Below, one piece after another: positions 1 through 38,700 of a stretch of 64,000 nt of DNA (position 1 is its first letter; each line of letters starts with the position of its first letter). The notes under the pieces were generated by a model. It searched no databases and had not been told where the DNA came from. It saw nothing but the letters and a program-made list of their open reading frames with translations. A program made the position numbers and the translations under genes. Source of the DNA: Haematococcus lacustris (taxonomy: Eukaryota; Chlorophyta; Chlorophyceae; Chlamydomonadales; Haematococcaceae); assembly GCA_030144725.1 (NCBI GenBank), contig JASKMD010000003.1, positions 14,342,496 through 14,406,495 on the forward strand, in the 5' to 3' direction.

Positions 1-88
1 ATATTAGTATTTTCACACAACCGTGTACTTTTCACGGGAAACCCAAGTTGTCCCAAAGGCCACCGCCCGTCGCACTGCGCATCGCGTG

Positions 89-1317
89 ATGGCTAAGAAG
101 AAGCACAAGAAGGACCCGGGAAAGAAACAGAAAGGTGCGTGACCCTAGCCGACTGTGGGCTACTGTGGGCTACGCGCTGTGTGATAACCCGTCGCTCCGG
201 TTGGTTACATCGCAGCGTCTCGTTCCGCCTAAGGCAAGCAACGCCAGGAGCGACGGGATGGCTGAAACACGACCAGACGTCAGGTGACGGCCCCGCCTTA
301 TGTGTCCCCGCACTGTTTGTGTTGACACCGCCTTGTGTCTTGGCCTGTCAAAATGGCAACTTTGATTGGCTGCAGGTCATCAAGGTCCCCGAGGGCGCAG
401 TGCGTAGGTGTGTGGGAGGGAGGGTAAGGTGGGCACTGGGAGGTGGTGGGTTGGGCATGAAGTGAAAGAGTACTTGATTGTGCCATGCCTAACCGTGTGC
501 CACCATGTCAGCCACCATGTGTGTGCCTTGTGTGCATGGCTGCAGCTGGAGGAGGAGATGGCTGAGCTGTCCATGAAGCGCCACAATCATGTCAAGCAGC
601 TGGTGGTGTTCTTTGGTGCAGCTACCATTGGCACTGGGGGTGGGTGGGGTGCTGACGCGGTGCTGCGAGCCTGCCGCAAGGTGGTGTGCAGGCCCAGGGG
701 CCCAGACCAGCTGCGAGGCAGGGTGGTGCTTGTGGATGAGCACCGCACCAGCCGGGTCAGCTCAGCAGTGAATGGCCAGCAGCCCTGTGAGGAGGAGCTG
801 GACAGACTCAGTGCCACAAGGCCTGCAGGCTGGAAGCCACCAGCAGGGCAGGTGGAACCCCACCTGGTGCGCCCAGCCTGGAGCCAGGAGCGTGGCCAGC
901 CAGTGCGGGGCCTGTTGTGGTGCCCAGTAGTGCCCCCCCCGCAAGCCCCCACAGGCCCCACGCAGCAGCCAGGCAGCCACACAGACAGCAGCCTCAGAGC
1001 CAGGGCCCAGCACTCCCCCTCCAGCCAAGCGCAGCAAGCCGCCAGCTGAGCCCACCAAGGGCAAGGGCAAGGGCAAGGCTGCCAAGGCCAAGCCAGCACC
1101 ACAGCCAGGCAGGTGGCTAGACCGGGACTGCAATGCGGCATTGAACATGCAGCGCATTGGGGAGAGCAGGTGGCGTCCACTGGAGCTGTGCTACTGGCCA
1201 GACCAGGGAGCTCTGCCAGCCAAGGGCAAGGAGTACCCTGGCCTGGGGTACAAGCGTCTGCGAGACAAGCCCCCAAAGGCCCAGGACCAGCAGCAGCAGC
1301 CTGCTGAGGCACAGTAA
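89..1317 (+). pseudogene. Fanzor-like (TnpB-type) nuclease remnant, family A
   Basis: Exon 1 (89-134) encodes the basic start MAKKKHKKDPGKKQK, which resembles a nuclear localisation signal, followed by a GTGCGT donor. A second exon begins after an acceptor at 545 and reads LEEEMAELSMKRH, then VVLVDEHRTSRVSS (a RuvC-II-like VDE-RTS motif), RGLLWCPVV, and after a frameshift GRWLDRDCNAALNMQRIGES (RuvC-III DRD.NAA.N), ending at TAA 1315-1317. The reading frame breaks at an 8-C run (933-940), where 7 C would restore continuity. The first zinc-ribbon pair expected after RTS is absent (SSAV instead of C..C). Known TnpB/Fanzor proteins are RNA-guided DNA nucleases; this copy lacks RuvC-I and should be inactive. 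Confidence 0.7.
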
Positions 1318-1577
1318 TGTGTGCCCCTTTTGTTGATCTGTCATCAGCTTACAATTAGTGCATGCATTGTCATGCCAACTCTACACATTGCCCTCGTGGT
1401 CAGGCAATAGTGTAGGTGGTAGGCGGGCTCATGTGCCATGTGCACTGGGTTTACTCCACACAGCCCAATAACACTGTTTGAGTCGGATCTAGTTAGTGGC
1501 TGCTAGTGGCTGCTAGTGGCGGCTAGTAGGTACTTCTGATCCGGCTCAAATGGAGGCCCTAGTGAGGGACAAGGGGG
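1318..1577 (+). other. conserved 3' noncoding end of family A (hairpin; omega-RNA candidate)
   Basis: About 260 bases after the stop codon are nearly identical in copy 1, copy 2 (14524-14782) and, in part, the solo copy at 3259-3461, although they do not code. Near the end, the arms at 1477-1489 and 1538-1550 are complementary over 13 positions with one G-U wobble, enclosing a loop with a repeated agtggctgct unit. TnpB and Fanzor guide RNAs are known to be encoded at the 3' end of the nuclease gene up to the element end, so this is a candidate guide RNA scaffold. It could equally be a recognition hairpin for a reverse transcriptase. Confidence 0.5.
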
Positions 1578-1580
1578 CTG

Positions 1581-2027
1581 CAGCAGGTCGAGCCCGTCTG
1601 TGAAGCCTGACCAGGAGGCCCCGGATCATGTGGCAGAGGCTGGGGACAGGGGGCCGCCCTGGCATACACTAGTGGCTATGAGGGGCCAGTCAGGGATAGT
1701 GTGGCTTGCTGTGTTGACCTGGCTGGGGTGCTGATCATGCCAGCTCTGGGGGCTGATGCAGCGGCCAGTGGTGTACCTCTCTTTCCTGGGGACCCCCTGA
1801 GCCTGGCCCTGTTGCGGGCCCATTCAAAGTTGTGCCGACCTGGCTGGGTTATAGCAGCAGATGCAGCAGCAGGGCTAGGCCCTTTGTTTGAGTATGAGTG
1901 TTACCTGATGGCCTGTCAGAGCCAAGGATAATGGTTTTGGCGTTAGGGATAGACTATGCTGTCTTTGTTAGCTGAACGCGGCATCAGAGGCAAGTCCCTC
2001 TGCAGCCTGCCAGGCACCATTGGGAAG

Positions 2028-2070
<43 letters not shown>

Positions 2071-2654
2071 TACATGTCTTAGCTGCCAAGTTAGCTTCAC
2101 GGCATGCAAACGCCCGTGCCTCAGCATCAATCCGCTGTGATCCCCCTGGAAGGCTTCTCACAGGTATCTTAGGCAAAGAGAGGGGTTGTGGAAGGGGGGC
2201 AGAGGGCATGATCCCGTAGCTAGTGCCCAAACCCTGCTGCCCTCAACAATTACACAGGTGTGTTAGGCTCCAGCGCTTCACAGGTCTGTAAGGATTACAT
2301 GCATTGACCGCTGGCGCTCCAACAGGCTTCATTGTGCAGACAGGCTGCGCTGGCTATCATCCCGAAAAAAGGTCCTACCACTCGGTCTTTGCATCTGAAC
2401 TCTCCGCCCGCTAGGCTCGCGAGGGAGGCGCTGGCCATCACAACGCGTGTCAACATAACGACAAACGTAACAAATCTAGAGAAGCCCGCGGGAACCAAAA
2501 CTGTAGGGCTCCCAAATGACCACGCCATTTAGTTCGTAGCCACCCTGCTCTCTCGCACACATCCTGCACACATCCCTGCACACATCTCTGCACGCTGCTC
2601 TTGAATCCCCGCACCTCTTGGGACCCCAAGTGGCGCAACCCATCATATTGCTAA

Positions 2655-2700
<46 letters not shown>

Positions 2701-2732
2701 TCCTCTCCCGCTGCCGGTGGCCTGCGGCGCGC
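1581..2732. other. gene-poor interval downstream of the protease, with two trinucleotide repeats
   Basis: I recognise no gene here. A short plus-strand open frame (1701-1931) has no family resemblance that I can name. A (CAG)n run sits at about 2029-2069 and a (CTG)n run at about 2659-2699. The part nearest 2733 is probably the 3' untranslated region of the minus-strand protease: a TGTAA motif, the usual green-algal poly(A) signal, lies on the minus strand at 2295-2299, about 435 bases past the stop codon. Confidence 0.4.
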
Positions 2733-9131
<6,399 letters not shown>

Positions 9132-9794
9132 CAAAGCGAGCGGACACCGGCACCAGCAGGGCCGTTGTATCGAGCTATACACAAAGGCCTGGCAGCCGTG
9201 TGATGCGTCTGTACGTGCTCTGTACAGGCTCTGTACAGGCTCTGGCAGCCGTGTGATGCGTCTGTACGTGTACCGGACTAGAGGCAGACTAGAGTGTGAG
9301 CAAGCACAAAGATTGATACTATTTGCTAAACTGCCCAGAGGAGAGGTAGTGCCGATTACATACAAGCGAGTGAGGCGAGGAGGCAACTTCCGCGTGAGAG
9401 GAGTGACCGCGCAACAACTCCCGGTCCGCTTGCCAAGGCTGACGATGTTCTTGCGATCAAAATTGTGAGGTAGGGTGCCTATATGCTTGCGGGCTACAGA
9501 GTCCGCGGCTGCGCGGCTACAGAGTGCGCGGCAACGACGGCCGCGTTGGGCCGGGATCTCTGGCTGTGGGAAGGAAGGCTGCGGCAGAGCTGCAGGTAGC
9601 ATGTCTGAGAAGGAATGTGATCCATTGCTGCAGCCAGCGCGCAGCGGCGCGACGCACGAGTTAGGTCGTGACTTCATAGGATGCTGACCGCCGGTAAAGG
9701 TTCGGCTCGTGAGGGACCAGCAAAAGCACGACCAATACTAGCAACTGCGGTGGCACGCAACGCATCCCCTGCTGTCCCTTTGCATAAATACAGC
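9132..9794. promoter_or_regulatory. upstream region of the protease gene
   Basis: The 660 bases upstream of the protease start show no convincing gene. Long open frames cross it on both strands but lack family resemblance and splice-bounded structure. A short tandem repeat of ctgtacaggctctg/cagccgtgtgatgcgtctgtacgtg type lies at about 9190-9275. I infer that promoter and 5' untranslated sequence lie here; no specific site is recognised. Confidence 0.35.
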
Positions 9795-10262
9795 CCAACT
9801 ACCTTGAGCAATGTGGAACAAGGTATTGTCTGTGGGTAATCTCACTCAGCTACTCTCAAACTGCAGCTACTCTCAAACTGTAGCTTCCTTGGTACTCATT
9901 AAAACAGCTTGATGCTTGAATGGCTCGCAGCCTGTTTGGGTACTGGACTCTACTAGTGTGGTTTGTAACCACAGGTTACTGGCCCAGCCATCAATGCCCC
10001 GCCGGTACTATGCATCCCGGTGCAGCAGCGGCCTGCCCTTGGGCAGCCGGTTGACCAGCTTGTATCGCTGCTGGTGCTCCTTGCCTTTGGGGGGCAGAGC
10101 CTCCCGGTCCTTCCTGCTTCACAGCTCCAGGGAGTGCTGCACGCTCTCCCCCATCCGCTGAAAGTCGAGGCAGGGGTCGGTTTCCCGGTCCAGCCACCTG
10201 CCCCACTGGAGGGCTTGGTGTGATGGGATTGGGCAAGGTGCAACAGGGGGGGCTGGTCAGGG
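9795..10262 (-). pseudogene. degenerate Fanzor-like C terminus, family C
   Basis: Read on the minus strand, this matches the C-terminal exon and 3' end of the family C copies at 15.8 and 20.9 kb. The RuvC-III core reads WLDRETDPCLDFQRMGES, so the second Asp of DRD is Glu and the conserved Asn is Asp. In-frame stops follow within the next 20 residues and near the end (a TAG where the better copy encodes the Glu of AAEYRRGIDG). The 3' noncoding part with the family C signature (ggtaatctcactcagctact) covers 9835-9960. It is clearly dead. Confidence 0.75.
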
Positions 10263-10344
10263 AGAGGGTCCCGGGAGGTGGGGCCTGGGCAGGGGTGGGG
10301 CCTGCCCACTAGTACATGCACCCAGCTTCGTAGAGAAGAGAAGG

Positions 10345-10510
10345 TAAGAGAGATCACGGTCAGACAAACAAAACTCATTCAACAAGGAACAACATGTTTG
10401 CCTGTGGGTAATCTCACTCAGCTACTCCAATCAAGTTGAAGCATCCTCGGTCGCAGCCTCGATGACTGCCAACCCCACACCGGTAACACTCTTTCCCACT
10501 AGACCACTGG
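10345..10510 (-). mobile_element. solo 3' end of family C
   Basis: This matches the noncoding 3' end of family C (15615-15770, 20515-20760, 40424-40585), including cagacaaacaaaactcatt, ggtaatctcactcagctact and catcctcggtcgca, with no coding part attached. It lies directly beside the degenerate copy at 9795-10262, giving two 3' ends in tandem. Confidence 0.8.
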
Positions 10511-10562
10511 CACCAGTGTTTTTGTCCATTTCGCCCTGACGCATGATCTATAGCTCAAAGTG
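10510..10562 (-). repeat. short dispersed repeat, partner at 28894-28945
   Basis: The minus strand reads tcactttgagctatagatca followed by gcgtcagggcgaaa. The same roughly 45 bases occur on the plus strand at 28894-28945. The family is not recognised. Confidence 0.7.
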
Positions 10563-10755
10563 ACCTAGTTCATACCTTTGAAATAATAGCTTGACCTGGC
10601 TGTAGGGATCCTTGCAATGCGGGAACTTTCCAGAAACCGATGCGGGAAACATTGTTGCAAAAATCATGTGCAATGCGGGGGCCCGAAAATCGCAACCCAC
10701 TACCGCACTGCCCACAGCCGCACGCCTGACGCCACAGCTGCCACTGCCGCAGCTG

Positions 10756-12239: not shown

Positions 12240-12519
12240 TACCGAACCTGCCATAGCCTGCAACAGCTACCCAGCCTGCCAAGGCTGACCAAGGCTTGAC
12301 TAAGCCAAGGCTTGACAAGGGCAAGGGCAAGGCTAACAACGGCAAGGACAAGGCTGCTGTGAAGCTCCTCCACGCTGGTGGCCTGGTCTCATGGCGTTGT
12401 TCTGCTTAGGCACTAAGGCATACCAGGGGTTGAGCAAGCAGCTGTGGTACCCCAGAATCAAGCCTAGGGTTATCACAGTCAAATTGGCTGATGTAGCGCG
12501 CAAGGCTGCTTTGTGATCA
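12240..12519 (+). mobile_element. family D Fanzor-like fragment, target of the copy 2 insertion
   Basis: The plus strand contains a Lys-rich linker-like stretch (KPRLDKGKGKANNGKDKAA) and then TKAYQGLSKQ and RIKPRVITVKLADVARKAAL. A related segment on the minus strand at 26571-27000 reads RIKAYQQLSKRSFKIKPSAI. Both resemble the end of family A (KGKEYPGLGYKRLRDKPPKA) at low identity. I infer a fourth, diverged family. The fragment is interrupted at 12519 by family A copy 2. Confidence 0.4.
12506..12519 (+). repeat. left target-site repeat of family A copy 2
   Basis: ctgctttgtgatca occurs here and again at 14783-14796, directly after the conserved 3' end of the element. With the two preceding G the match is 16 bases. 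Confidence 0.75.
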
Positions 12520-12694
12520 TGGACCGGGATCACTGTACCCCGCACAAAGTACCCCATTGCTGGTGCTGGTGCTGCGGCTGTGCCTGGACCCCGGCTGCAC
12601 CCAGCACTTGTGTATTTTCACACAACCGTGTATTTTTCACGGGAAACCCAAGTTGCTTGAAAAGGCCACCGCCCGTTGCACTGCGCATGGCGTG

Positions 12695-14523
12695 ATGGCT
12701 AAGAAGAAGCACAAGAAGGACCCGGGAAAGAAACAGAAAGGTGCGTGACCCTATCCGACTGTGGGCTACTGTGGGCTACGCGCTACTGTGGGCTACGCGC
12801 TGTGTGATAACCCGTCGCTCCTGTTGGTTTAATTGCAGCGTCTCGTTCCGCCCAAGGCAAACAACGCTAGGAGCGACGGGATGGCTGGACCACGCGTAGA
12901 CGTCAGGTGACGGCCCCGCCTTATGTGTCCCCGCATTGCTCGTGTCCCTGTCAAAATGGCAACTTTGATTGGCTGCAAGTCATCAAGGTCCCCGAGGGCG
13001 CAGTGCTGCGCGGCTGCAAGAAGACGAGGCGCAAGCTGCGGGAGCACCTCCGGCTGCGGGCTGAAATCCACTCCCAGCTCCGCGTGATCGCGTCGTTGTT
13101 TGTCTTGCGCATTTTTCTCACCTGCCTGGTGGCCTACCCTACCCCGGGCTTCCCCAGCGCCCCTCAGCCTCCAGTCGTGCAGCCCCCCCAACCCCCTGAT
13201 GCTCCCCCCCTACCCGCCCTACCCCCACAGGCCCCTGCCCAGCCTGCCCCTGCCCAGCCTGCCAGCATGGAGTTTGACACTGACTCTGACTCCGAGTCAG
13301 ACTGTGACTCAGAGCCAGAGCCACAGTCTGACTCGGGGTCAGAGTCAGAACACGAGCCAGTCACGCAGCCCCCCCCAAGGCGCTGCAGCGCCCGCCTGGC
13401 AGCCCTTGCACCCGCAGCACCCACTGGCCCTCCCTTGCCCCTTGACTGCGAGGACCCTGTCATGCTGAGGCAGCTCAAGGACTTCTGCATGTTCTTTGCC
13501 AACCCAAACTTCAAGACTGTCTACAACCAGCTGCAGCGACGCCATGTTCGGCACCGCCACCCCATGCTCATGCCAGCCTTTGAGGACCCCAGCAACCAGG
13601 CGCTGCTGGCCAAGCTGCAGGAGCTGGGTAACATCCACCTGGCGGGTGACGCCAACACCATTGGAGCGCACTCCATGCAGCTGGCGGTGGCCATGCAGCA
13701 GCATTACTCCAACCCAGGCAAGTAATGGTGGTGACTAGACCTGACCTGACCTGACCTGACCTGACCTGATACCAGACCAGACCTGACCTTATACCAGACC
13801 TGACCTGACCTGACCTGACCTGCAGAGCGCATTGTCAAGCTGGGGGTGGGTGGGGTGCTGACGCGGTGCTGCGAGCCTGCCGCAAGGTGGTGTGCAGGCC
13901 CAGGGGCCCAGACCAGCTGCGAGGCTGTGTGGTGCTTGTGGATGAGCACCGCACCAGCCGGGTCAGCTCAGCAGTGAATGGCCAGCAGCCCTGTGAGGAG
14001 GAGCTGGACAAACTCAGTGCCACAAGGCCTGCAGGCTGGAAGCCCCCAGCAGGGCAGGTGGAACAGCGCCTGGTGCGCCCAGCCTGGAGCCAGGAGCGTG
14101 GCCAGCCAGTGCGGGGCCTGATGTGGTGCCCAGTAGTGCGCCCCCCCGCAAGCCCCCACAGGCCCCACGCAGCAGCCAGGCAACCACACAGCCAGCAGCC
14201 TCAGAGCCAGGGCCCAGCACTCCCCCTCCAGCCAAGCGCAGCAAGCCGCCAGCTGAGCCCACCAAGGGCAAGGGCAAGGGCAAGGCTGCCAAGGCCAAGC
14301 CGGTTCCACAGCCAGGCGGTGGCTAGACCGGGACTGCAATGCGGCATTGAACATGCAGCGCATTGGGGAGAGCAGGTGGCGCCCACTGGAGCTGTGCTAC
14401 TGGCCAGACCAGGGAGCTCTGCCAGCCAAGGGCAAGGAGTACCCTGGCCTGGGGTACAAGCGTCTGCGAGACAAGCCCCCCAAGGCCCAGGAGCAGCAGC
14501 AGCAGCCTGTTGAGGCACAGTAA
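12695..14523 (+). pseudogene. Fanzor-like nuclease remnant, family A copy 2
   Basis: Exon 1 (12695-12740) gives MAKKKHKKDPGKKQK. A second exon (about 12984-13718) encodes VIKVPEGAVLRGCKKTRRK, a Pro-rich stretch, an acidic DSDSESDCDSEPEPQSDSGS region, a basic RRCSARLAAL patch, and EDPVMLRQLKDFCMFFANPN onwards; it ends at a possible GC-type donor (GCAAGT). After the TGACC repeat, 13825-14523 encodes VVLVDEHRTSRVSS-type RuvC-II and the C terminus. Compared with copy 1 the RuvC-I to RuvC-II portion is deleted. Two frameshifts are visible: a 7-C run at 14141-14147, and one lost base before RuvC-III that creates TAG at 14324-14326, so DRDCNAALN is out of frame. Confidence 0.7.
13739..13822. repeat. 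(TGACC)n pentanucleotide in the Fanzor intron
   Basis: Imperfect TGACC units fill the intron between the N-terminal and C-terminal exons of family A copy 2. The equivalent intron of the family C copy (16668-17340) holds the same pentamer in the same gene orientation, expanded to about 134 units. Confidence 0.9.
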
Positions 14524-14782
14524 TGTGTGCCCCCTTTGTTGAGCTGTCATCAGCTTACAATTAGTGCATGCATTGTCATGCCAACTCTACACATTGCCCT
14601 CGTGGTCAGGCAATAGTGTAGGTGGTAGGCGGCTCATGTGCCATGTGCACTGGGTTTACTCCACACAGCCCAATAACACTGTTTGAGTCGGATCTAGTTA
14701 GTTGCTGCTAGTGGCTGCTAGTGGCTGCTAGTAGGTACTTCTGATCCGGCTCAAATGGAGGCCCTAGTGAGGGACAAGGGGG
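14524..14782 (+). other. conserved 3' noncoding end of family A copy 2
   Basis: Equivalent to 1318-1577, with the same hairpin arms near 14685-14697 and 14741-14753. It ends with ggggg directly before the CTG-beginning target repeat at 14783. Confidence 0.5.
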
Positions 14783-14796
14783 CTGCTTTGTGATCA

Positions 14797-15604: not shown

Positions 15605-15820
15605 GTTACAGGCAAACAAAGCTCATTCAACATGGAACAACATGTTTGACTGTGGATAATCTCACTCAGTTACTTCAAACAAGTTGAAGCATCCTCGGTC
15701 GCTCCCCTGATGACTGCCAACCCCACACCGATGGCACATTCCCCCTAGACCACGGGGCACCTCATCAAAACTAACAGCTGGGTGCTTGAAAGGCTAACAG
15801 CCTGTGCAAACTACTAGGGC

Positions 15821-18357
15821 CTACGCCTTGTTGCGGGCCCGGCCATCAATGCCCCGCCGGTACTCTGCAGCCCGGTGCAGCCTCTGCCTGCCCTTGGGCA
15901 GCCGGTCATTGACCGGCTTGTAGCGCTGATGGTACTCCTTGCCAACGGGGGGCAGGGCCTCCAGGTCTTTCCAGCTGCACAGCTCCAGGGGGCGCTGCTT
16001 GCTCTCCCCAACGCGCTGGAAGTTCAGGCACGCGTTGGTATCCCGGTCCAGCCACCTGCCCCATGGGGGGGCCTGGGGTCGCTGTACTGGGCCAGGTGGG
16101 GGCTGGGCAGGGGGCTGGTCCTGAGCTGCGGGAGGGGGCTGGGCCTGGGCTGAGGGAGGGGGAGGGGGGTCCTGGGCAGGGGCAGGGGGAGGGTCCTGGG
16201 CAGGTGGCTCCTGGGCAAGGAGGGCCTGGGCGGGGGCAGGGGGGTCCTGGGCAAGGGGGGCTGGGGCAGGAGGGGGGCACCTCATGGCACCACTTCAGGC
16301 CCCGCACACACTTAGCATGCCGAAGGCTCCAGGCTGGGCGCAACAGCCTGTGGCTGACCTGGCCTGCTGGGGGTACCCAGTCTGCGGGCCTAGGCTGGTC
16401 AGGCGGCAGGTGCAGCTCACATGGCTGGCGGGCGTGCACAGACGAGCTGACACGGCTGGTGCGGAACTCATCCACGATCACCAGCCTGTCAGGCCTGGGA
16501 TCCGTGCTGGGCCTGCTGGGCTGCTCCACCACCTTGCGAAACCCCTCCCGCACCGCCCCTGCCTTCCACCCACCCTGGCTGAAGTTGCCCGCTCCCAGGT
16601 ACACCGCCACTCCCCTCTCCTGGTGGTAGTGCTGGCGTGACACCCACTTCATCCCATTCACCACCTGCAGGTCAGGTCAGGTCAGGTCAGGTCAGGTCAG
16701 GTCAGGTCAGGTCAGGTCAGGTCAGGTCAGGTCAGGTCAGGTCAGGTCAGGTCAGGTCAGGTCAGGTCAGGTCAGGTCAGGTCAGGTCAGGTCAGGTCAG
16801 GTCAGGTCAGGTCAGGTCAGGTCAGGTCAGGTCAGGTCAGGTCAGGTCAGGTCAGGTCAGGTCAGGTCAGGTCAGGTCAGGTCAGGTCAGGTCAGGTCAG
16901 GTCAGGTCAGGTCAGGTCAGGTCAGGTCAGGTCAGGTCAGGTCAGGTCAGGTCAGGTCAGGTCAGGTCAGGTCAGGTCAGGTCAGGTCAGGTCAGGTCAG
17001 GTCAGGTCAGGTCAGGTCAGGTCAGGTCAGGTCAGGTCAGGTCAGGTCAGGTCAGGTCAGGTCAGGTCAGGTCAGGTCAGGTCAGGTCAGGTCAGGTCAG
17101 GTCAGGTCAGGTCAGGTCAGGTCAGGTCAGGTCAGGTCAGGTCAGGTCAGGTCAGGTCAGGTCAGGTCAGGTCAGGTCAGGTCAGGTCAGGTCAGGTCAG
17201 GTCAGGTCAGGTCAGGTCAGGTCAGGTCAGGTCAGGTCAGGTCAGGTCAGGTCAGGTCAGGTCAGGTCAGGTCAGGTCAGGTCAGGTCAGGTCAGGTCAG
17301 GTCAGGTCAGGTCAGGTCAGGTCAGGTCAGGTCAGGTCATACCTTCTTGCAGAAGCCCTCAATGATGCGCTCCTGGCTTGAGGTACTCCTCCCACAGCGG
17401 TTCCCAGGTGGCCTTGAGGGCTATGTGGCTATGTGGGTGGCTGGGCTGTAGTCACTCGTGGCTGTGAGCTCGCGCCCTATGAAGGGCAGCTCCACTGGCT
17501 CATGGACTGCCTGGCTGCGCACAAAGTGAGCTGGCTGCGGGTGCCGGTAGTACTCTGTGATGCTTGTGATGATTTTGGTGGCGTTGGCATTGAGGGAGTT
17601 GTTGTCGCCTTGCATGTGCACCTGGTCCAGTTCCTGAAGCTTGGCTACTGGCCATGCACTACTGGGCTGCTCAAACACGGCCACCTCACCAGGCAGCAGC
17701 TTGATGCTGCGGTGGTGGGGGCCACGCATCAGGTGCTCCTGCACACTTGCGTTGGTGAGCAGGTCCATGGCAGCCTTGATCTGTGGCAGCAGGTTGGGGT
17801 CCTCGATGTCCAGCTGAACTGGGGGGGGCAGTTGGGCTGGGGGGGCTGCACTGCGGGGTGAGCGGCGTGTGGGGAGGCGGGGGTGAGAGTAGGGAGGGCA
17901 GGCTGGGTCAGGTGGGGGAGGGGGGCATGGGGCTGGACCTGCTGTTGGGAAGCCTCGAGAAGGCTGGCCTAGGAATGACTGGAGCAGCATGGTCAGGTCC
18001 ATGACCGCTGCCAGGCAACACTGCATGCTGCCCATGGTCATGCGCTGGTTGACCTGTGCCACCACTGCATCGACTTGAGCTGGGCTGAGGTCAGGCTGCG
18101 CTGCCTCCACAAGGGCACGAAAGGCGGCCTTGATCACCTGGCGCCGCTCTGCAATCACCTCCTGCTCACCCTGTCCCTGCCCCTCATCCTCTTGCTGCCC
18201 ACTACCACTGGGACCTGCATTACATGGAGTCGCAATGTCGCGTGGTGCACACTGCGTCGCGTCGTGAGGGGGGCCTGGACTTTTGTCGAGCTTAGTGGCT
18301 TACCGGCTGCACTCTGTGCGGGGGTGAGGGGCGCTTGCGTTTCCTTTTCGGCGGCAT
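15821..18357 (-). pseudogene. Fanzor-like nuclease remnant, family C
   Basis: A first exon (18304-18357) starts MPPKRKRKRPSPPHRVQP, a clear nuclear-localisation-like sequence. The next (from about 18214) carries IAERRQVIKAAFRALVEAAQ, EDPNLLPQIKAAMDLL and WPVAKLQELDQVHMQGDNNS, equivalent to the second exon of family A. It then decays: KATWEPLWEEYLKP and QERIIEGFCKK are in different frames. After the pentamer intron, VVNGMKWVSRQHYHQERG, RLVIVDEFRTSRVSSSVHAR (RuvC-II type), RGLKWCHEV and, after another C-run frameshift near 16280, GRWLDRDTNACLNFQRVGES (RuvC-III type) follow, ending RGIDGRARNKA. The RuvC-I region is missing. Confidence 0.7.
16668..17340. repeat. (GGTCA)n pentanucleotide, about 134 units
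   Basis: An essentially perfect pentamer array fills the family C intron between an apparent donor after GGCTTCTGCAAGAAG and the acceptor before GTGGTGAATGGG on the minus strand. All three frames on each strand are open across it. Confidence 0.98.
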
Positions 18358-18452
18358 CACAGGAATACAGCAACACCATCCAAGCGGAAAGGCCGTGCTG
18401 GAGGGCGCATCAGGTCACCATTAGGGAGCGTCATTTTTTCTAGGTTTTTCTA

Positions 18453-20438: not shown

Positions 20439-21316
20439 TCCCGCTTATCAGTCAACACAGGTCAGCATGACACGAGCTTCACCGGTGCTTCTGACAGGAG
20501 CTTCTAACATGGTCAGACAAACAAAACTCATTCAAAATGGAACAACGTTCAACATGGTCAGACTCATCCATTGGCTACTGCTCGCTGGAGCCGCTGGAGA
20601 CACCCGGTTTGTCACACCTTCCCTCTAACACAGCTGTGGGTAATCTTACTCCCACACAGCTGTGGGTAATCTCACTCAGCTACTACAATTAACTTGCAGC
20701 AACCTCGGTCGCACCCTTGATGACTGCAAACCCCACTCCGGTGGCACGTTCTGAGGCTAATCCCCCATGACCACTGGGCACCTCATCAAAACTAACAGCT
20801 GGGTGCTTAAAAGGCTAACAGCCTGTGCAAACTACTAGGGCCTACGCATTGTTGCGGGCCCGGCCATCAATGCCCCGCCGGTACTCTGCAGCCCGGTGCA
20901 GCCTCTGCCTGCCCTTGGGCAGCCGGTCATTAACCAGCTTGTAGCGCTGCTGGTACTCCTTGCCAATGGGGGGCAGGGCCTCCAGGTCCTTCCAGCTGCA
21001 CAGCTCCAGGGGGCGCTGCTTGCTCTCCCCAATGCGCTGGAAGTTCAGGCAGGGGTTGGTGTCCCGGTCCAGCCACCTGCCCCATGGCGGGGCCTGGGGT
21101 CTGGGCACTGGGCCAGGTGGGGGCTGGGCAGGGGGCTGGTCCTGGGCTGGGGGAGGGGGAGGGGGGTCCTGGGCAGGGGCAGGGGGAGGGTCCTGGGCAA
21201 GGGGAGGGGGCTGGGCCTGGGCTGGGGCAGGGGGGTCCTGGGCAAGGGGGGCTGGGGGAGGGGGGTTAGGCGGCACCTCATGGCACCACTTCAGGCCCCG
21301 CACACACTTAGCATAG
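20439..21316 (-). mobile_element. 5'-truncated family C copy next to the bZIP gene
   Basis: On the minus strand this begins abruptly at AAGTGTGTGCGGGG (about 21314) and contains only the last coding part and the 3' noncoding end of family C. The C-terminal frame (to 20842) is intact: RGLKWCHEV, a Pro-rich linker, GRWLDRDTNPCLNFQRIGES and a tail ending RRGIDGRARNNA. The segment is bracketed by a 24-base direct repeat. About 75 bases (20439-20512) beyond the usual family C 3' end are included in the bracketed segment. Confidence 0.75.
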
Positions 21317-26450: not shown

Positions 26451-26454
26451 CTAT

Positions 26455-26535: not shown

Positions 26536-26570
26536 ATCTATGCTCCTCCAGAATAAACCAAGAGTTACAA

Positions 26571-27000: not shown

Positions 27001-27267
27001 TGGAACAGGCTGCATGCCCACCTGACCGCAACCCCACGCGCAGGGAGTGGTACAGCCGCCACAACGCCGACAAACAGCACATCAACGGCTGCGGGCTTGC
27101 CAGCTCTGGACCGCGCCCTGCCGACTGTGGGCTGCCTGGGGTGGCCCGGCACAAGCAGTACGCCGACAGGTGCACCTCCCTCCCGCAGGCTGTGTGTGGC
27201 TCAGCTAGGTGATAGGTATATGTAGGTAGCCTGTATAGGTAGGTGGGCAGGCAGAGGCTGGCAGGGC

Positions 27268-27575
27268 CAAGGTCAGGCAGAGGCTGCACCGGGCTGCAGA
27301 GTACCGGAGGGGCATTGATGGCCGGGCCCGCAACAATGCGTAGGCCCTAGTAGTTTGCACAGGCTGTCAGCCTTTCAAGCACCCAGCTGTTAGTTTTGAT
27401 GAGGTGCCCAGTGGTCATGGGGGATTAGCCCCAGAACGTGCCACCGGAGTGGGGTTTGTAGTCATTAAGGGTGCGACCGAGGTTGCTACAACATGTTTGT
27501 AGCAGCTGAGTTAGATTACCCACAGTCAAGCATGTTGTTCCTTTTTTAATGAGTTTTGTTTTACTGTCAGGTCTG
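27268..27575 (+). mobile_element. family C 3' end with last coding codons
   Basis: Begins with the last codons of family C (RGIDGRARNNA, stop at about 27341) and continues through the noncoding 3' end to gagttttgttttactg near 27566. Orientation is opposite to the copies at 9.8-21.3 kb. It lies just upstream of the ankyrin-like gene and could contribute to its 5' region. Confidence 0.8.
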
Positions 27576-27652: not shown

Positions 27653-30165
<2,513 letters not shown>

Positions 30166-30606
30166 AGGTAATAAAAACAGCTCTGACCCTGACCCTGACC
30201 CTGCCACTGCTACTGCCACTGACCTGAGCCAATAAACATCCCGGCCAACTCCAGCCTGGCCTGGGCCTGGGCTGAACGACTTGACTGCATGCCCCTGCCA
30301 TGACCTGACCTAGCCTGGCCTGGCTTGACATGGCCTGACCCAACCTGGCCTGGCTTGGCATCAACAGAGAACCCACTGACTCCAACGTGAAGGCACGCCT
30401 CCATGCACCATGCACGCCAGCATCCACCCAAGCGCCTCACACAACACGTTTGACAAGCCAGCTGGTTTGGCTCCACCCCTCCCCTGTACCCCTGTGACCA
30501 CCGCAACCCTAAACCCAAGACCCTAGAATCACCCTGTACACCCTGAGCAGCCACCACGGTGTACTGATACAAGCTCAGCTTGCCAGGCCTCCCTGCCAGA
30601 CCCCCC
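30166..30606. other. spacer 3' of the ankyrin-like gene
   Basis: Contains short ctgacc/ctggcct tandem tracts; no gene seen. Confidence 0.4.
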
Positions 30607-30617
30607 TGCTGTCCCTT

Positions 30618-30847
30618 GGGAGTTGTGCTGAATGAGAGTTGTCGGATGCTGATGCTGATGCTAAAGTGTGCACCGCATATGTGTGCCTACATCAGAGCAT
30701 GTGTTCATGCCAACATAGATTGCCCGGCCTTCGCAAGTGGGTTGGGGTAGTGAATCACGTATTGGTACCGGATGCTTGCTGCATGCAAACAGTTCGGATT
30801 ACAGATAACACAGCCCCTGCCCTGTAGTAATAGTAGGGGAACAACTG
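30618..30847 (+). mobile_element. solo 3' end of family B
   Basis: Bases from about 30667 match 34336-34520 almost exactly and, more distantly, the noncoding 3' end of the family B pseudogene (37215-37395): agagcatgtgttcatgccaa, then ttggtaccggatgcttgctg and taatagtaggggaacaactg. The first 50 bases resemble a variant family C terminus (gggagttgtgctga, compare 31925). The unit is flanked by the 11-base direct repeat tgctgtccctt at 30607-30617 and 30848-30858. Confidence 0.75.
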
Positions 30848-30858
30848 TGCTGTCCCTT

Positions 30859-31756
30859 CAATGCAACTTTTTCAATGCAAATTCAAGTCGTCTGGCGCAT
30901 GCTGGTTGGTGCTGGCTGGTTTGTGTGGGGGCTGCAATTGATACTGGCCGCAGGCTGGGCTGCCCCACCCCATCTCGCCATGCCCCGTCTCTCTGCCCAG
31001 TGAGTCCCTGGCGGGCTGTTCACGCCAGGCGCTACAGCTTCCTGAGCGCAGTGGGGCCGGACCAGCTCCTAGGAGCCAAGCTCCAGAGGGCAAGGCGCCC
31101 AGGCGGGCGTGTGGGTACACTGCAGGGCGGGGTGGCTCATGCAAGATGGGTGTGAGATGGATGGTGATTAATGTTGTTGCCCCATGTCAGGCATGAGGAC
31201 ATTGTGGCTGCTTTCAGGGGATGATGCTACTGGGCAGGGGCGGGGTGAGGTGAGGTGGGGTGGCAGCGGAGTGGGGCATGGCAGTTCAGCAATGGTGCAT
31301 CAATGTGTGGCGGCAAGGAGGGCACTGTCAAACAAGCATGGCCCTGCTCCTTAACTTTTGGATGCCTTGTACCATCTGTTGCATATGCTCCCCCTGCTAG
31401 CCCCCTGCTGTGGTGCAGTGCAGCTGCTTTGCGGGCCATCATTTGTCACCCTGTGCATGGCCTGCATGCGGTTGTCTGCATGCGGTAGCCTCCATGCGGT
31501 TGCCTGCATGCGGTTGCCTCCATGCGGTTGCCTCCATGCGGTTGCCTCCATGCAGTTGCCTCCATGCGATTGCCTGCATGCGCCAGGACTAGGTAGAGTT
31601 GCAGCAGCAGCGCCAACCAGTGGAATAAGGGCCAGTGCTCAGCGCCATGTGTACATATTGAGCATAGCTGCATGGCTCCATGCTGCTGCTACCTGGCATC
31701 ATTGACATGACGCACTGCAACCTCGCTGAAGTTGAGCAGGAGCTGTACTACCATGC
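30859..31756. other. spacer with a minisatellite
   Basis: A splice-bounded-looking segment near 31000-31110 (RYSFLSAVGPDQLLGAKLQR) is open but not recognised. A 14-base minisatellite lies at 31455-31588. Confidence 0.35.
31455..31588. repeat. 14-base minisatellite
   Basis: About nine tandem units of ttgcctccatgcgg with single-base variants. Confidence 0.9.
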
Positions 31757-31950
31757 TATAAGCCTTTCAAGCATTAAGCTGTTAGTTTTGATGGGAAGCT
31801 CAGTTGCCTTCAGAGGAAACGGGTGTCACAGGTGTGGGGTTTGTAGTCATCAGGGGTGAAATCGATGAAGCTACAGCTGAAATGTACCTGAGTGGGATTA
31901 CCCACAAACAACACCCTGCTCCATGTTGAACGGGAGTTGTGCTGAATTGG
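31757..31950 (+). mobile_element. solo 3' end of family C, variant terminus
   Basis: Diverged match to the family C noncoding end (agctgttagttttgatg, ggggtttgtagtcatcagggg, gggattacccaca). It ends in a variant form, gttgaacgggagttgtgctga, rather than gttgaatgagttttgtttg. Confidence 0.65.
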
Positions 31951-32737
31951 AGTTATTTTAGCCCACATATGTACATCAAGGTTGCCTCAGCATCAGATGC
32001 CTGCTTGGGTGGTCATGTGCATCATGTGGGGGGTGCTTTATGTGGGGGCTACTGTCAAGGGTTGTTACCAGATGTTTTGTGCAGCTGCATTGCTAGGACA
32101 TGAGTGCCCATGGCTCACAATGCATACATCCAACCTACTACCTGGTGCCAGGCTGACTACCATAACTCTCAACGCTGGTGCTTGTTGCGGTGCCGTTGTC
32201 CCGCTAGCATGCGGCTTTAGAGTCAGGCGCCTGCTGGAGGCCATGAACCCATACCCTGGTGTACAGCTTCAGTGGTGTGGCCCACACGCCCAGTGAGTTG
32301 CTCAGTGACTGCAGATCAAGTCCCAAGACTCCGCTAGTGTGACTCCCAACCTTATGTGAGACCCAGTTATGCACTTGCCTTGTTGCAGCGGGTAGATTGG
32401 CACTGGGCGGTATCGCGGTTGCTTCATCTTAAGTGGACTGTGCAAATGGAGCTGGTGTTGAGAACTTGATTGAATCATGTACCTGCCTAATGCCATTAGT
32501 GACGAAAGAGCTGTCGTGGGGCAGTCACCCAGTTGTGAGATCCGTGTCTGACCTATTCAATAGGCTATTGAGATTGACGGTGGAGGATTGAGGGAGTCAC
32601 AGACCCGAGCCTTGCTCATTCCGCAAGTCTCACTCTCTCTGTAAACGGCTATCCTGCGCTCTTTCCCCTGCCAGTCGCGTGTGACCAAAGGCGGGGCACT
32701 GCGCATACAGGGCATGCCTGATGTCACGCGTCGACGC
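31951..32737. other. spacer 3' of the golgin-like gene
   Basis: No gene is recognised. It includes the diverged repeat segment 32222-32282, shared with 14880-14945. The 3' untranslated region of the golgin-like gene probably occupies the right part. Confidence 0.35.
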
Positions 32738-35700
32738 TCATGGTTGCAATGTGTTCGGCTGTGTTGGCAGGGCCAGCAGGCCCTTGTCGTCACACACGCA
32801 CAGCTGTGACACGTCCCGCGTACGAGTGAAAGACACCATCACCGCGATGTGCAGCAGGGACAGGTAGCCGGCGATGAGCCACACGCGAAGTGGCACCACG
32901 CCCAGCACCTTTGCAGCTGCAGCCTGCGCGCTCCCCGTAGCTGCAGCAGCTCCCCGCGCCTTGACCGGTCGCACTACTGCGGGCGCCGCCTCCATGTCCG
33001 CCTCACTCTTCCAGCGCAACCGGTCATCCTTCCAAAGCTCTAAACCTAGACCTGCAGGCGGCGGGCAACGAGAGGGGCTGTCAGAGGCCGCCCAGGCCCA
33101 GGATTGTAGCTGGTAATAATGTAACGATCACGCAGTAACGCAACCCATCACAGGTTGAGTGTGGGTGGAGTGCGGGAGCCAACACGGTTGCCCCCAGCGG
33201 CATGAGGCTGATATTGTAATAGCTGCCGTGAGCGCCCCTGTCCCTCTGGATCCCCATAGCACCTTGCATGCCAAGTGACACTGTGCATGACCTTCATCTG
33301 CACCCAGAGGTGCCCAGAGTGAATAGCACCTAGGGCAGCAGAGTATGGCTGAGCCAGCGTCATTTGTTCACTAGAGCAGCGGTGATCTCACCTGCCAGCA
33401 CGTCCTGCTTGGTGGGCAGCTGGAACAGCGACAGCACGCCTGAGCTGGCGCGCAGCTGCTGCAGCTCTGCCTCCAGCTCAAGCACACGCTTGGCTGCGGC
33501 GGCGGCTTCGTTGCCTGACCTCTCCGCCACTTCCCGCCCTACGCACACGCAGAGAGGCAACTCTCATGTTCGGCCTTGCCTCAGACTCTGGTGCAGATAC
33601 ACACAGCAACGTCTAGGGACGTGCCCCATCATTACATCACAGTCTTGGCTTGTAGGTCTAGCTAAGCGACCCAGTCCCTCTTCAGCTGCACACCCTGACA
33701 CCTCCAGCAGCAGCAGCAGTGTGGGGGTCTGGCTGCTCTCTGGCTGCCTGCCAATACCCCGCTCGCTGGCCTGCCTGCCCATGCATCTTAACCAGTGCCT
33801 CCCCTTTGAGACCTGCTAGCATGCGGCCCTCTCACGAGCCCCCACCTGCTGCCACCGCCTGCTCCAGTTGCCTCTCCGCTGCGTGAGCAGCTTGTGCTGC
33901 AGCCTCTGCCCGGTCCTGCTGCCGCCTGACCTCCAGCTGCAGGCTGTTGACCAAGTCCTCATGCAGGCTGCGTTCACGCACCAGCTGGCCTCGCAAGGCA
34001 TCCGCCTCTGCCCTGGCAGCAGCGCATGCGCCCTGCACCACCACAAGCCCAGCACCCATCACTCTACCACTCCTTTGCATGGCCACATGACCGCTCCTTG
34101 CGCCATGGGTCTGGCAGGGGCAATGAGAGGGACAGTCACCACAACAAACTGGCTGGGTGGGCATCACTGACATTGCAGCACAGGGGCTGGCTGGTCCAGC
34201 AAGGTTGGCACATCACACACCACAGCTCCACAATGCCACATCACCAGCTGTTCAGACAGATCGCTGTCCCAGGGGCATGTGCTCAGAGAGCGAGCCCCCA
34301 GGGCCCAAGCCCAGCAGCCTGTAGCACAGTAGCATGTGTGCACCGCATGTGTGCCTACATCAGAGCATGTGTTCATGCCAACATAGATTGCCCAGCCTTC
34401 GCAAGTGGGTTGGGGTAGTGAATCACGTATTGGTACCGGATGCTTGCTGCATGCAAACAGTTCGGATTACAGATAACACAGCCCCTGCCCGGTAGTAATA
34501 GTAGGGGAACAACTGTGCTGAGGGGCAGCGATGCAATTCTGATGAAATGATGATGAAATTTTGAAAAGACACACAGCACCACAGACAGCCACAGCCTCCA
34601 GCCACACCCCAGCCACAGCAAGGCACAGGCCAGGGACTCCATGCTGTCTAGCAGCACGCAATCCTCAAACTCAGAATCACGCATGGCCACGGCTGCGTGT
34701 GCTGAGCCCCCTGCCGTGCTTGCCACCATGCATGTCCAGCATGTTGCCCCCTCTGCATCACTGGGCCTAAACCAGACTCTACACACACACTGCTGTCACC
34801 CTTGCTAGATACTAGACATGTTAGACATGTAGTCGTGGTGACAGCAGTGGCAAGCACGGTGGCAAGCACGGCAGGGGGCTCAGCAGACGCAGCCGTGGCC
34901 AACCTCGATGGTCGACCTCGCGCACCCAGGCGCTCTGGGCCTGGCCTTGGTCGCCACCCAACAGGGCTGACACGCCGGCCCAGTCAGAAGCAGAGGAGAA
35001 ACTGGCAAGACCACCAGCAGCCCTCCCCCCAACACCGCGCCACTTGCCTGCAGGTCTTCATGGGCCGACTGCAGGGCATCCAGTGCAGCCTGAGCCTCCC
35101 TTGCCACCGCCTTGGCGTCATGAGCATTTGCCAGCGCCTCCGCCTCCCTGGCTGCAGCCCTCTGGGCCGCGCTCTCTGCACTAGCGGCCAGGTTGCCAGC
35201 GGCCACGGCATCGGCAGTGCGGGCATCGGCCTCCTGCCTGGCTGCCTCGGCTGCTGCCAGGGCCAGGCGCAGCTCACTGCGTGCCTCATACTGCCCGGCC
35301 TGAGCTTCACGCAACTGGCTCTGCAGGGCAGCAGCAGCAGCAGCAACGGCGGCAGCAGTAGCAGCACAGAGGTTTGTCATACTGCACTCCTCAAGGGCTG
35401 GGCCTCCCCAAGCCCCGCTGAATGGGCAGAGTGACTGCTTCTCAAGGTGCCCTTTCGAGGTGCCCTTTGGAGGTGTCCTTTGGAGGTGCGAGAGTGAGAG
35501 CGTAGTGGCGCAATGCCTCCGAGGAAGCCTTCCAGAATGCTGCCTGGCAAGCTCCTCATGGGTACTAGAGGGCATGGCAGGCACCTACACACAGACTAGG
35601 GTCAACCTGTGTCAGCCACCACTCCTGTTGGTGGCCTTTGTGCAAATTGGCATGGCTTCCACTCCAATGCCAGGACAATGAATTCTTATGATACATTGAA

Positions 35701-38700
35701 ACCTGACATTGAAACCTTACAATCTGAAGGTAGTTCATGGCCTTTTCACTCACGGACTGCGACAGATGGCTGGCTAGCTGGTGGCCACAGCTGGCACCTG
35801 CCAGGCACACTGTGTCCATGTCTGTGCAAGCACCTCACTGTCAATGTTAGTACCCCTCATCAGCGCAGGACCCAACCCTGTCCTGGGCCTGCCTTGCATG
35901 ACTGCATGATAGAGCAGCGTCCTTGCCTGCAACTCGTCCCGCTCCGCTTCCAGCTCCGATTGCACACGGCCCACTGCAGCCTTAACCGCGTTGTTGAACA
36001 CGCGGGCTCGTCGCTCCTGCTCCATCTTCAGCGTTTCAGTCAGGCCCTCCGCCTCTGCGCGAGTGCTGCGCTCAGCGTCTGCGGCTGCAATGGCAGCATG
36101 CGCTTCTGCCTGCAGGCAGAGGGAGCAAGGTTCAGGGCTCTTAGCCCAGTAGGTCAGGTCAGGTCAGGTCAGGTCAGGTCAGGTCAGGTCAGGTCAGGTC
36201 AGGTCAGGTCAGGTCAGGTCAGGTCAGGTCAGGTCAGGTCAGGTCAGGTCAGGTCAGGTCAGGTCAGGTCAGGTCAGGTCAGGTCAATTCAGGTCAGGTC
36301 AGGTCAAGCACGCCCCTCTACCCTCAATACTTTTGAGCCTGGCACAAGAGCTGCATCCCACAGCCACCAAAGCTGACAAGAGCCCAGCGCGGTGCTCAGC
36401 CTGCCCATGTCGTCCCCACCTCTTGCTCACAGCCCTCACCTGAGCCGCCCTGCGCATGCGGTCTGCCTCATTGCGAGCCGCCTCTGCCGCCTGGCGCGCT
36501 GCCTCAGCCAGTGCTGCCCGCGCCTCAGCCGCCTCTTTGGCCTCCACAGCTGCCGTGGCCTTGCGCACCGCCGCCAGCAACTCCACCCCCAGCTCCTCCA
36601 GCTCTGCAGTGCCGGCAGCCTGCCATACAACAACACATGCATAATAAAGAACAGGGCGGAGCAGGCGCTGGTGACACAAGCAGCCATGGTGGCCCATTAG
36701 CGGTGGGGGACACGCAAGCAGCTGGTGGTGTTCTCTAGCAACGCAGGCATTGGCACGCGGGTTGGGTGTGGGGCCAAGGCCGTGCTGCAGGCCTGTCGCA
36801 AGGTGGTGGAGAGGACCAACAGCGGCAAGCCGACAGACAGGCTGCCAGGCAAGGTGGTGACAGTGGATGACAGTGGAAGCCCCCAGCAGGTCAGGTGCAG
36901 CACCGCTTGTTGCAGTCAGCCTGAAGCAAGCGGTTTGAAGCGCCAGTGCGGGGCCTCATGTGGTGCCCCTGGCTGGACCAGGCCACCCCTTGGGACATTG
37001 GCAAATGTGTGGACAGGAATTGCAACGCAGCCCTCCATCTTAAGCACACCCCATGAAACCCCATGGCGCCCACTGGAGCTGTGCAGGTGGCAACACCGAG
37101 GAGCGGCTCCTGCCAAGGGCAAGGAGTACCCAGCATTGGGCTTCAAGAAACTGCGAGACCGAGCACCCAAGGCCCAAGCCCAGCAGCCTGTAGCACAGAA
37201 GCACGTGTGCCCTAGGCAATGCTTAAGCTGTTGCTTACATTAGAGCATGTGTTCCATGCCAACATCTATCGCCCCACCCTCGCAAGGGCATGGGGGTAGG
37301 AAATTAGGTATTGGTGCCGGCTGTTGTAGGTGTAGGTACCGACAGTTTGGAGAGCAGATAACGCATCTCCTAGTAAGGGAACTATGCGCTGGAAAGGACA
37401 TGACGAAACCCTGAGTGAGAGGGAGAAAGGGAAGAGAGAGGGAGAGAGTGGGGGGGGGAGGGTCCACACCATGCACCCCATGCGCCCTTGCTTTTGAGGA
37501 GGCAGGCATGCACGCATGGGCAGCTCACCCTGCCAGACCCACCACTCGACTCTGCGCCTCTGCCTCCTCCAGCTTTAGCTGTAACTGTGAGGCCACGAGC
37601 TGGGCTGCCGCAGCCTCTTGCCGTGCCGTCGAGGCTGTCTGTACAGCCTCTGCGGCCTCACGCTTTGCTGCTTTGGTGGCCGCAGCACTCTCCTGAGCAG
37701 TGGCTTGAGCTGCTCGGTTCTGAGCCTCTAGCTTGACCTGTGCCAGCAGCCACACACGGTCACACTGCCGCCATCAACGAGCCAGCCGCTGGGCACGCTA
37801 CACTGGGCACGCTGTCACTGGGCACGCTGGACACTTAGTGCATGCAGGACATGCCAACTCTACATCATAGCCCTCCGGGGTCAGATAATAGTGTAGGTGG
37901 TAGGCGACCATGACCATGCATATGCCATGTGTGAGCCATGTGTATGCCATGAGCATGGGAACTCCACACAGACAAAAAACTGTTTTGAAGGGGTCCACAC
38001 TGAGTGTTCCACTGCAATGAAGGCTCAAGGTTGAGGGCCAAGGTGCTGTCAGCCAGTGTGCAAGCATGATGGTAGGGGAGGCACAGGCAGGAGCAGTGCG
38101 CCCTGGGGGTCAGCAGGTGCGGCAGAAGCCCCGGCAGTGAGGCTGGCAATGGACAGGCAGCCCAGTCAGGAGGTTGGGTACCGGGCGCTGCGGCAAACCC
38201 ACCACTTCATCGCTCAACCGCACGCACTCATCCATGCTCTTCTTCAGCAGCTGGCGCATGTCGTCATAAGCCCTCTGCAGCCGCCCCACACACACAGTCT
38301 TGCACATCGCCATCTGACTCCCTTGGCATTCCCTAGTTATGTTCTTATGTCCTCCCTCTGCCATGTCATGGTGGTTATGGTGGTTATAATGGTCCTTTGC
38401 AACCCACTAACTATACTGCTGTATACATGCCGCCATGCAGTGGCCCTGGCCCAAGCCCTGGCTATTCCCTGCTGGTATCCTGCGGTGCAGCAATGAAGGC
38501 TGAAGCCCCGAATGCAGTCAGCAAGTCATCGGGATCCTGGATAGGGGCGCCCCTTACCTTCATCTCATTGTATGCCTTGCGCATGTCACTGTTGACAACA
38601 TGCTCTGCAGCATCGCTGCGCTGCCCCTGGCCCCTGTCAGTTGATTGGGACTCCGCCTGCAGGAGAGTGGGCAGGTTGCATCACTGAAGAACCCTGTGGC

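What the first reader, a model, noticed from the sequence alone, without database searches (positions are those of the whole stretch)
7..37400. A nest of Fanzor-like (eukaryotic TnpB-type) element families in one 64-kb region
At least three separable families (A: 7-1580, 12520-14782; B: 36717-37400; C: 9795-10262, 15605-18380, 20439-21316) encode a protein with VDE[HF]RTSRVSS followed about 100-150 residues later by DRD.NA.LN, matching the RuvC-II and RuvC-III signatures of TnpB/Fanzor. Family A and C open with strongly basic, NLS-like peptides (MAKKKHKKDPGKK; MPPKRKRKRP), as reported for Fanzors that act in the nucleus. The density of remnants implies a recently very active system in this genome.
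Basis: partly seen in the sequence, partly recalled or inferred. Interest (0 to 1): 0.85.

Follow-up and report, generated by a model that had tools for sequence, protein, structure and literature searches.

The report
Green-alga Fanzor transposons without zinc finger
This stretch of a green alga's genome is littered with broken copies of jumping genes that carried an RNA-guided-nuclease-like protein (a Fanzor), and this alga's version of the protein keeps its cutting residues but has lost the zinc-binding part described as strictly conserved in its relatives.

Summary
The motifs are real. The window lies in a Haematococcus lacustris assembly and holds at least 15 pieces of Fanzor1-type elements (families A, A', B, C). 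The copies are broken; the RuvC-I motif is in none of them. Intact-looking relatives from this species (P0122, P0125) carry DPG (RuvC-I), the repositioned glutamate (VDE..TS) and RD (RuvC-III). A weak AlphaFold model of the core has solved Fanzors as its best matches.

(1) The C4 zinc ribbon is absent: 0 of 231 segments between glutamate and RuvC-III have a CxxC, while the glutamate is kept in 231 of 231. (2) Copies share a fixed 3' end, ...CTG, are 5'-truncated or internally deleted, and where an exact target duplication of 8 nt or more was found (14 distinct insertions) CTG precedes it 14 of 14 times; an empty paralogous site confirms one. This matches the one-ended, Helitron2-like transposition described for Fanzor1 elements in Chlamydomonas, with CTG in place of TTTT. 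A Helitron Rep domain occurs in the genome.

Best reading: non-autonomous Helitron-borne elements of a zinc-ribbonless Fanzor1 lineage. Guide RNA, nuclease activity and partner Helitron are untested.

The parts
1..1580 (+). Family A copy A1 (the element begins upstream of the window, at about -418); exon with basic N-terminus, RuvC-II/VDE part and RuvC-III part; internal deletion, frames broken; 3' end ...GGGGGCTG at 1580; 12-bp TSD 1581-1592
3259..3464 (+). Family A 3'-end-only copy A3; 9-bp TSD CCAGCCATA at 3250-3258 and 3465-3473, preceded by CTG
12520..14785 (+). Family A copy A2; TSD CTTTGTGATCA at 12509-12519 and 14786-14796, preceded by CTG; RuvC-I region missing, frameshifted; an empty paralogous site is L052
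37831..38048 (+). Family A' 3'-end fragment, ends GGCCAAGGTGCTG
36715..37391 (+). Family B copy (degenerate: VDDSG, DRNCNAALH); 3' end TGCGCTG
34286..34520 (+). Family B 3'-end-only copy; a 7-bp repeat AGGGGCA at its flanks is not preceded by CTG
30618..30852 (+). Family B 3'-end-only copy; 6-bp repeat TCCCTT at its flanks, preceded by CTG
15609..18380 (-). Family C copy C2 (5' limit approximate); basic N-terminus, VDEFRTSRVSS, DRDTNACLN; RuvC-I region missing; (CAGGT)134 array 16668-17339 in a presumed intron; 3' end TTTGCCTG
20514..21316 (-). Family C 5'-truncated copy C3 (RuvC-III part and 3' end, with an insertion)
9795..10300 (-). Family C degenerate copy C1b (DRETDPCLD); 3' end not fixed
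10361..10514 (-). Family C 3'-end-only copy C1a, ends TTTGTCTG
27267..27566 (+). Family C 5'-truncated copy (C-terminal 24 residues and 3' end), ends TTTTACTG
31752..31944 (+). Family C 3'-end-only copy, ends TTGTGCTG
40420..40595 (-). Family C 3'-end-only copy, ends TTTGTCTG
57851..58006 (+). Family C 3'-end-only copy, ends TTGGCCT (the one fixed end in the window without CTG)
40144..40241 (-). Family A coding fragment (82% over about 100 nt)

Best explanation
These are dead, mostly 5'-truncated copies of non-autonomous, Helitron2-like elements whose cargo gene is a Fanzor1-derived RuvC protein. A Helitron Rep/helicase acting in trans recognises the constant 3' end, nicks after its terminal CTG and joins it to a target nicked after a genomic CTG (often GGCTG); copying runs from the 3' end and often stops early, leaving 5'-truncated copies with target duplications of about 8-13 bp. 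Shown here: fixed CTG end, CTG target, TSDs, truncations, internal deletions, 5' filler in one copy, one empty paralogous site, a Rep domain in the genome, three catalytic motifs in intact-looking relatives, no CxxC zinc knuckle in any segment examined. Inferred: that the Helitron is the mover; that a guide RNA is made from the 3' end with its guide in the 3' flank (as shown for other Fanzors in PMC10432273); that the zinc-less protein still cuts DNA and so helps the element to persist or re-copy.
Confidence: 0.66

Rival explanations
1. The copies are spread by a LINE (non-LTR retrotransposon) that copies the transcript: 5' truncation and variable TSDs are its usual signature.
For: 5'-truncated copies with intact 3' ends and TSDs of 8-13 bp.
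Against: A2 and C2 keep a first intron: removing the GT..AG stretch joins the flanking codons as in the annotated relatives P0104 and P0227 (A2 read by hand; C2). No A-tail or other tail at the 3' ends seen; the target trinucleotide equals the element's own end; several copies keep the 5' part and lose the middle.
Confidence: 0.14
2. Cut-and-paste DDE transposons (such as MULE-like) that captured a Fanzor gene.
For: Fanzor1 genes are known in Mariner, MuDr, Sola and IS4-like elements (abstract passage).
Against: TSD length varies from 8 to 13, and TSD-bounded copies start at different places while ending at one. Terminal inverted repeats were not searched for systematically.
Confidence: 0.06
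3. Fanzor-derived protein that has lost nuclease function: the lineage is a self-spreading 3' end whose coding part is a passenger, and the zinc ribbon was lost because the protein no longer cuts.
For: The window's copies are broken; no CxxC in 231 of 231 segments; dN/dS of 0.62-0.78 across the RuvC-II/zinc region between families, higher than in most RuvC-III comparisons.
Against: DPG, E and RD motifs are kept while the zinc cysteines are not, and between A and A' the RuvC-III segment has dN/dS 0.12-0.18.
Confidence: 0.3
4. Not a Fanzor at all: another RNase H-fold transposase with look-alike motifs.
For: No profile match by sequence above a cut-off.
Against: Motif order, spacing, repositioned glutamate and structural ranking all point to the TnpB/Cas12/Fanzor group; 7 of the 331 listed relatives carry a precomputed PF07282 label, two of which stayed just below the cut-off when rescanned.
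Confidence: 0.05

Closest known systems
Chlamydomonas reinhardtii CRe-1/2/3 (Fanzor1 in non-autonomous Helitron2; Bao and Jurka 2013, PMC3627910, sections 6, 8 and 9 read, the rest by passages)
   Same: Green alga, multi-exon Fanzor1 gene, 5'-truncated and internally deleted copies with constant 3' ends, TSDs of variable length (about 7-19 bp there, 8-13 bp here) directly after a short target motif, occasional 5' filler
   Different: Target motif is TTTT or another T-rich word there, CTG (often GGCTG) here and equal to the element's own 3' end; the published Fanzor motif includes a C4 zinc finger, absent here (CRe proteins themselves were not compared); link to an autonomous Helitron's ends shown there, not here
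SpuFz1 (Spizellomyces punctatus Fanzor1; PMC10432273, passages read; PDB 8gkh, 9ceu)
   Same: RuvC order and catalytic D-E-D arrangement; best structural neighbour of the model by Foldseek E-value
   Different: SpuFz1 has a CCCC zinc finger (PMC10432273 legend) and its element has terminal inverted repeats and TA duplications (PMC3627910 passage); RNA-guided cleavage shown there, untested here
The most abundant repeat of Auxenochlorella, a Fanzor-encoding element (PMC12633428, passages read)
   Same: Fanzor-encoding element abundant in a green-algal genome
   Different: Element uncharacterised there; no sequence comparison made here

Membership tests
Fanzor1 (motif of PMC3627910; hallmarks of PMC10711439) | RuvC-I aspartate in DPG | tested here: met
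   138 of 145 listed proteins with ..GVTQ read DPG, 4 another D.G, 2 EPG, 1 unrelated; absent from the window's copies
Fanzor1 (motif of PMC3627910; hallmarks of PMC10711439) | Repositioned RuvC-II glutamate, six residues before the zinc finger position | tested here: met
   E in 231 of 231 VDE..TS segments (the pattern allowed E or D only); six residues lie between E and the first S of SSAV/SSSV
Fanzor1 (motif of PMC3627910; hallmarks of PMC10711439) | C4 zinc finger between [TS][TS]xx and RD | tested here: not met
   0 of 231 segments (226 unique, from 214 of 331 proteins) hold any CxxC; usual reading SSAV or SSSV; PF07282 below cut-off
Fanzor1 (motif of PMC3627910; hallmarks of PMC10711439) | RuvC-III RD, with D-X(125-275)-[TS][TS] spacing | tested here: met
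   DRD.N together with the other two motifs in 97 of 331 proteins; 186 residues in P0236
Fanzor1 (motif of PMC3627910; hallmarks of PMC10711439) | RNase H-like core resembling solved Fanzors | tested here: inconclusive
Fanzor1 (motif of PMC3627910; hallmarks of PMC10711439) | Guide RNA from the element's 3' end and RNA-guided cleavage | not testable with these tools
   No RNA or biochemical data. A 3' stem shared by A and A' was predicted from 8 sequences of two subfamilies only; no Rfam match in the window
Non-autonomous Helitron2 with one-ended transposition (PMC3627910) | Constant 3' end with frequent 5' truncation and internal deletion | tested here: met
   CTG end in 45 of 46 copies with a fixed end; truncated and deleted copies
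Non-autonomous Helitron2 with one-ended transposition (PMC3627910) | Variable-length TSDs directly after a short target motif | tested here: met
   14 distinct insertions with 8 nt or more, CTG before 14 of 14; empty paralogous site for A2
Non-autonomous Helitron2 with one-ended transposition (PMC3627910) | 3' subterminal hairpin | tested here: inconclusive
   z -2.8 for family A; -1.8 to +1.0 for the seven other 3' ends folded
Non-autonomous Helitron2 with one-ended transposition (PMC3627910) | 5' hairpin and asymmetric terminal inverted repeats | not tested
   No full-length 5' end was fixed
Non-autonomous Helitron2 with one-ended transposition (PMC3627910) | RepHel-encoding partner with the same ends | tested here: inconclusive

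The most novel reading that the evidence does not exclude
A Fanzor1 lineage that dropped the zinc ribbon but still cuts DNA, and in which one short word, CTG, is at once the end of the element, the target of the rolling-circle transposase and possibly the motif that the nuclease needs beside its target. If so, each insertion recreates a cuttable site at its own 3' junction, a self-targeting arrangement that would help explain one-ended copying and the mass of truncated copies.
Probability: 0.2. Interest if true: 0.78.

Novelty: new variant of a known kind. Interest (0 to 1): 0.52.

Why it matters
The C4 zinc finger is described as part of a strictly conserved motif of TnpB/Fanzor (PMC3627910, section 6) and as shared by SpuFz1 and ISDra2 TnpB (PMC10432273, a legend passage). 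A large lineage that keeps the D-E-D motifs but has no CxxC asks whether the ribbon is dispensable, which bears on how such nucleases fold and how small they can be. The CTG rule makes the Helitron-Fanzor partnership testable in a cultivated alga. It is also a practical warning: at least 331 'hypothetical proteins' of the H. lacustris annotation (the rows listed) match these elements, out of 30,575 genes reported in PMC10400597.
Full report
What is there. B carries VDDSG and DRNCNAALH, C3 only the RuvC-III half, and the 9795-10300 piece a decayed form. BLAST of the copies against the window adds family A' and eight copies that hold little more than the 3' end. The copies are broken: no D.GVTQ occurs in six frames of the window and no tblastn match covers the RuvC-I motif, and in A1, A2 and C2 the two reported motifs lie in different reading frames.

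Whose genome. A query spliced from family A found 1158 relatives at E <= 0.001; the 120 listed are all 'hypothetical protein QJQ45_...' of Haematococcus lacustris, and so are the 120 listed of 639 and of 434 in the other two searches (331 distinct proteins; the unlisted ones were not seen). Six large contigs of the window's genome (16,549,500; 16,037,447; 12,357,645; 8,246,294; 6,974,760; 5,182,000) equal contig lengths given for these proteins; two others are slightly shorter (C175 21,597,500 against 21,607,000; C166 17,718,615 against 17,722,355), and the total is 307.9 Mb against 316.0 Mb published (PMC10400597, passages: 30,575 genes, 50.8% transposable elements, longest scaffold 21,607.0 kb).

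What protein. Intact-looking relatives P0122 and P0125 (A type) and P0236 and P0227 (C type; P0122 is 41% identical to P0236) read DPG, VDE..T[ST] and DRD in the order and spacing of Fanzors. PMC10711439 gives DPG and a glutamate moved to six residues before the zinc finger as Fanzor hallmarks (passages). Among the 331 listed proteins DPG stands in 138 of the 145 with ..GVTQ, the glutamate in 231 of 231 VDE..RD segments, and 97 proteins hold all three motifs. The segment pattern itself required V, an acidic residue and T followed by S, T or R, so it cannot see copies that lost those.

What is missing. The zinc ribbon. None of the 231 segments (226 unique, 214 proteins) has a CxxC; the first knuckle reads SSAV in 160 and SSSV in 50. 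Two single cysteines remain in most: QPC-like in 226 and WC in 208 of 231; a third, in LELC, is invariant in two alignments (C834 of P0236). Families A and C share the loss, and so do the B-type readings seen (L014; P0251), so it is a property of the lineage and not decay of single copies. This fits PF07282 staying below its cut-off (its best stretch is only the RuvC-III end) and finding nothing in the genome, although 7 of 331 listed proteins carry a precomputed PF07282 label. It breaks a feature that PMC3627910 includes in its strictly conserved motif (section 6), so by the membership rule these are Fanzor1-derived proteins and not textbook Fanzors. Whether the Chlamydomonas proteins share the loss was not tested.

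Selection. In the 61-codon RuvC-III segment dN/dS is 0.12-0.18 between subfamilies A and A', 0.10 between the two A' copies, 0.31-0.36 between A or A' and B, and 0.44-0.89 between A or A' and C. A1 against A2 gives 0.2 there and 1.75 (on 9 changes) in the RuvC-II/zinc segment, where the families differ by 0.62-0.78. So the A/A' master copies were under constraint at least at RuvC-III, and the former zinc region is looser. Counts are small and the method (Nei-Gojobori counts) is simple.

How it moves. The copies stop at ...CTG: 13 of 14 fixed ends in the window (the exception is C58), 5 of 5 in the random samples and 27 of 27 further family A loci (3 of the 30 loci are the window's own). For family A the end was located by a string ending in GGGCTG, but all 30 fall at the same place (1700-1703 of each locus) with 25 different 3' flanks; the ends of B and C were set by eye. 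Searching with no condition on the preceding bases, exact repeats of 8 nt or more of the 3' flank were found upstream in 14 distinct insertions (A1, A2, A3, L017, L018, L020, L028, L036, L037, L044, L045/46, L049, L050, L051), 8 to 13 nt long; CTG stands before 14 of 14. Displaced flanks gave CTG plus 8 or more in 0 of 180 and any 8-mer in 9 of 180; random window positions gave CTG plus 8 or more within 4.5 kb in 0.9%. Repeats of 6-7 nt are mixed: after CTG in B30 and L043, not in C2, C3, C40, C58, B34, L042 and some others, about what chance gives. The remaining copies showed none in the stretch available (1.7 kb for the 30 loci). In 10 of 12 family A insertions, the 7-bp case L043 included, the target reads GGCTG, like the element's own end. 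A related place without the element (L052) shows a single CTTTGTGATCA after ACTG, as an empty site should; it is a paralogous stretch with two nearby gaps, not an exact allele. Copies bounded by TSDs are simple 5' truncations (L025/L031, L037, L043, L045/46, L051), retain 5' sequence and lose the middle (L028, L036, L044, L050), or have 133 nt of 5' filler (L049).

Reading. PMC3627910 (section 8) describes the same for Chlamydomonas CRe-1/2/3: 5'-truncated, internally deleted, constant 3' ends, TSDs of about 7-19 bp after TTTT or another T-rich word, filler at some 5' ends, interpreted as one-ended rolling-circle transposition of non-autonomous Helitron2. Here the word is CTG. A Helitron Rep domain is present in the genome (18 places, 7 strong). 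The LINE rival explains truncation and TSDs but not the kept first intron of A2 and C2, the missing tail, the deleted middles or the identity of target and end.

Density and age. Family A 3' ends are 97-100% identical in the 40 places that were scored, of 2718 first-look candidates; a 5' region gives 96-100% in 40 scored of 1489. Only the best candidates are scored, so these are the youngest copies, and candidate numbers are not copy numbers. The window's C copies are 78-95% alike and B pairs lower. By protein match the window holds about three times the density of 20 even samples of its contig (6.2% against 2.2%).

Prior print. In the library searched, the only work holding both Fanzor and Haematococcus (PMC12633428, in two versions) does not connect them in the passages seen, and no listing or passage seen reports a Fanzor without zinc finger; most subscription papers are not held.

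Noticed in passing
16668-17339 and 36151-36306: Long pure 5-bp arrays, (CAGGT)134 in a presumed intron of Fanzor copy C2 and (AGGTC)31 upstream of the B copy; a short array of the same word lies between coding parts of A2.
   Followed up: partly
L001, about -418 to -90 relative to the window: The 5' part of element A1 is a (GTGCCA)n array bounded by the TSD, as if the end of copying had run into or expanded a simple repeat.
   Followed up: no
49462-51096 and 53603-54565: Very large GC-rich arrays, (CGGG)240 and an 8/28-bp array, read as open in several frames (ARPP, GRAGG); they lie near an ORF with sub-threshold exo_endo_phos similarity (52021-52551).
   Followed up: partly
5252-5770 (-): Papain-type cysteine protease exon (PF00112, E 9.9e-11) in one open frame with a (GGGCAG)44 array.
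   Followed up: no
46565-47032 (-): N-terminal piece of a ribosomal S3Ae protein (PF01015, E 2.1e-9).
   Followed up: no
BFVD hit A0A2P0VP66 (Tetraselmis virus 1): An uncharacterised protein of a virus named for the alga Tetraselmis matches the model (E 4.4e-6); a possible route of Fanzor transfer among algae.
   Followed up: no
C175:18338385-18338560 (L053): A second copy of the A2 3' junction, with the element end, about 4 Mb away: the insertion seems to have been carried along in a segmental duplication.
   Followed up: partly
QJQ45 proteins listed: Some predicted genes join host domains (Pfam labels such as PF00069, PF00022, PF00125, PF00416; names kinase, actin, histone, ribosomal protein recalled) with Fanzor element pieces, so domain combinations in this annotation need care.
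   Followed up: partly
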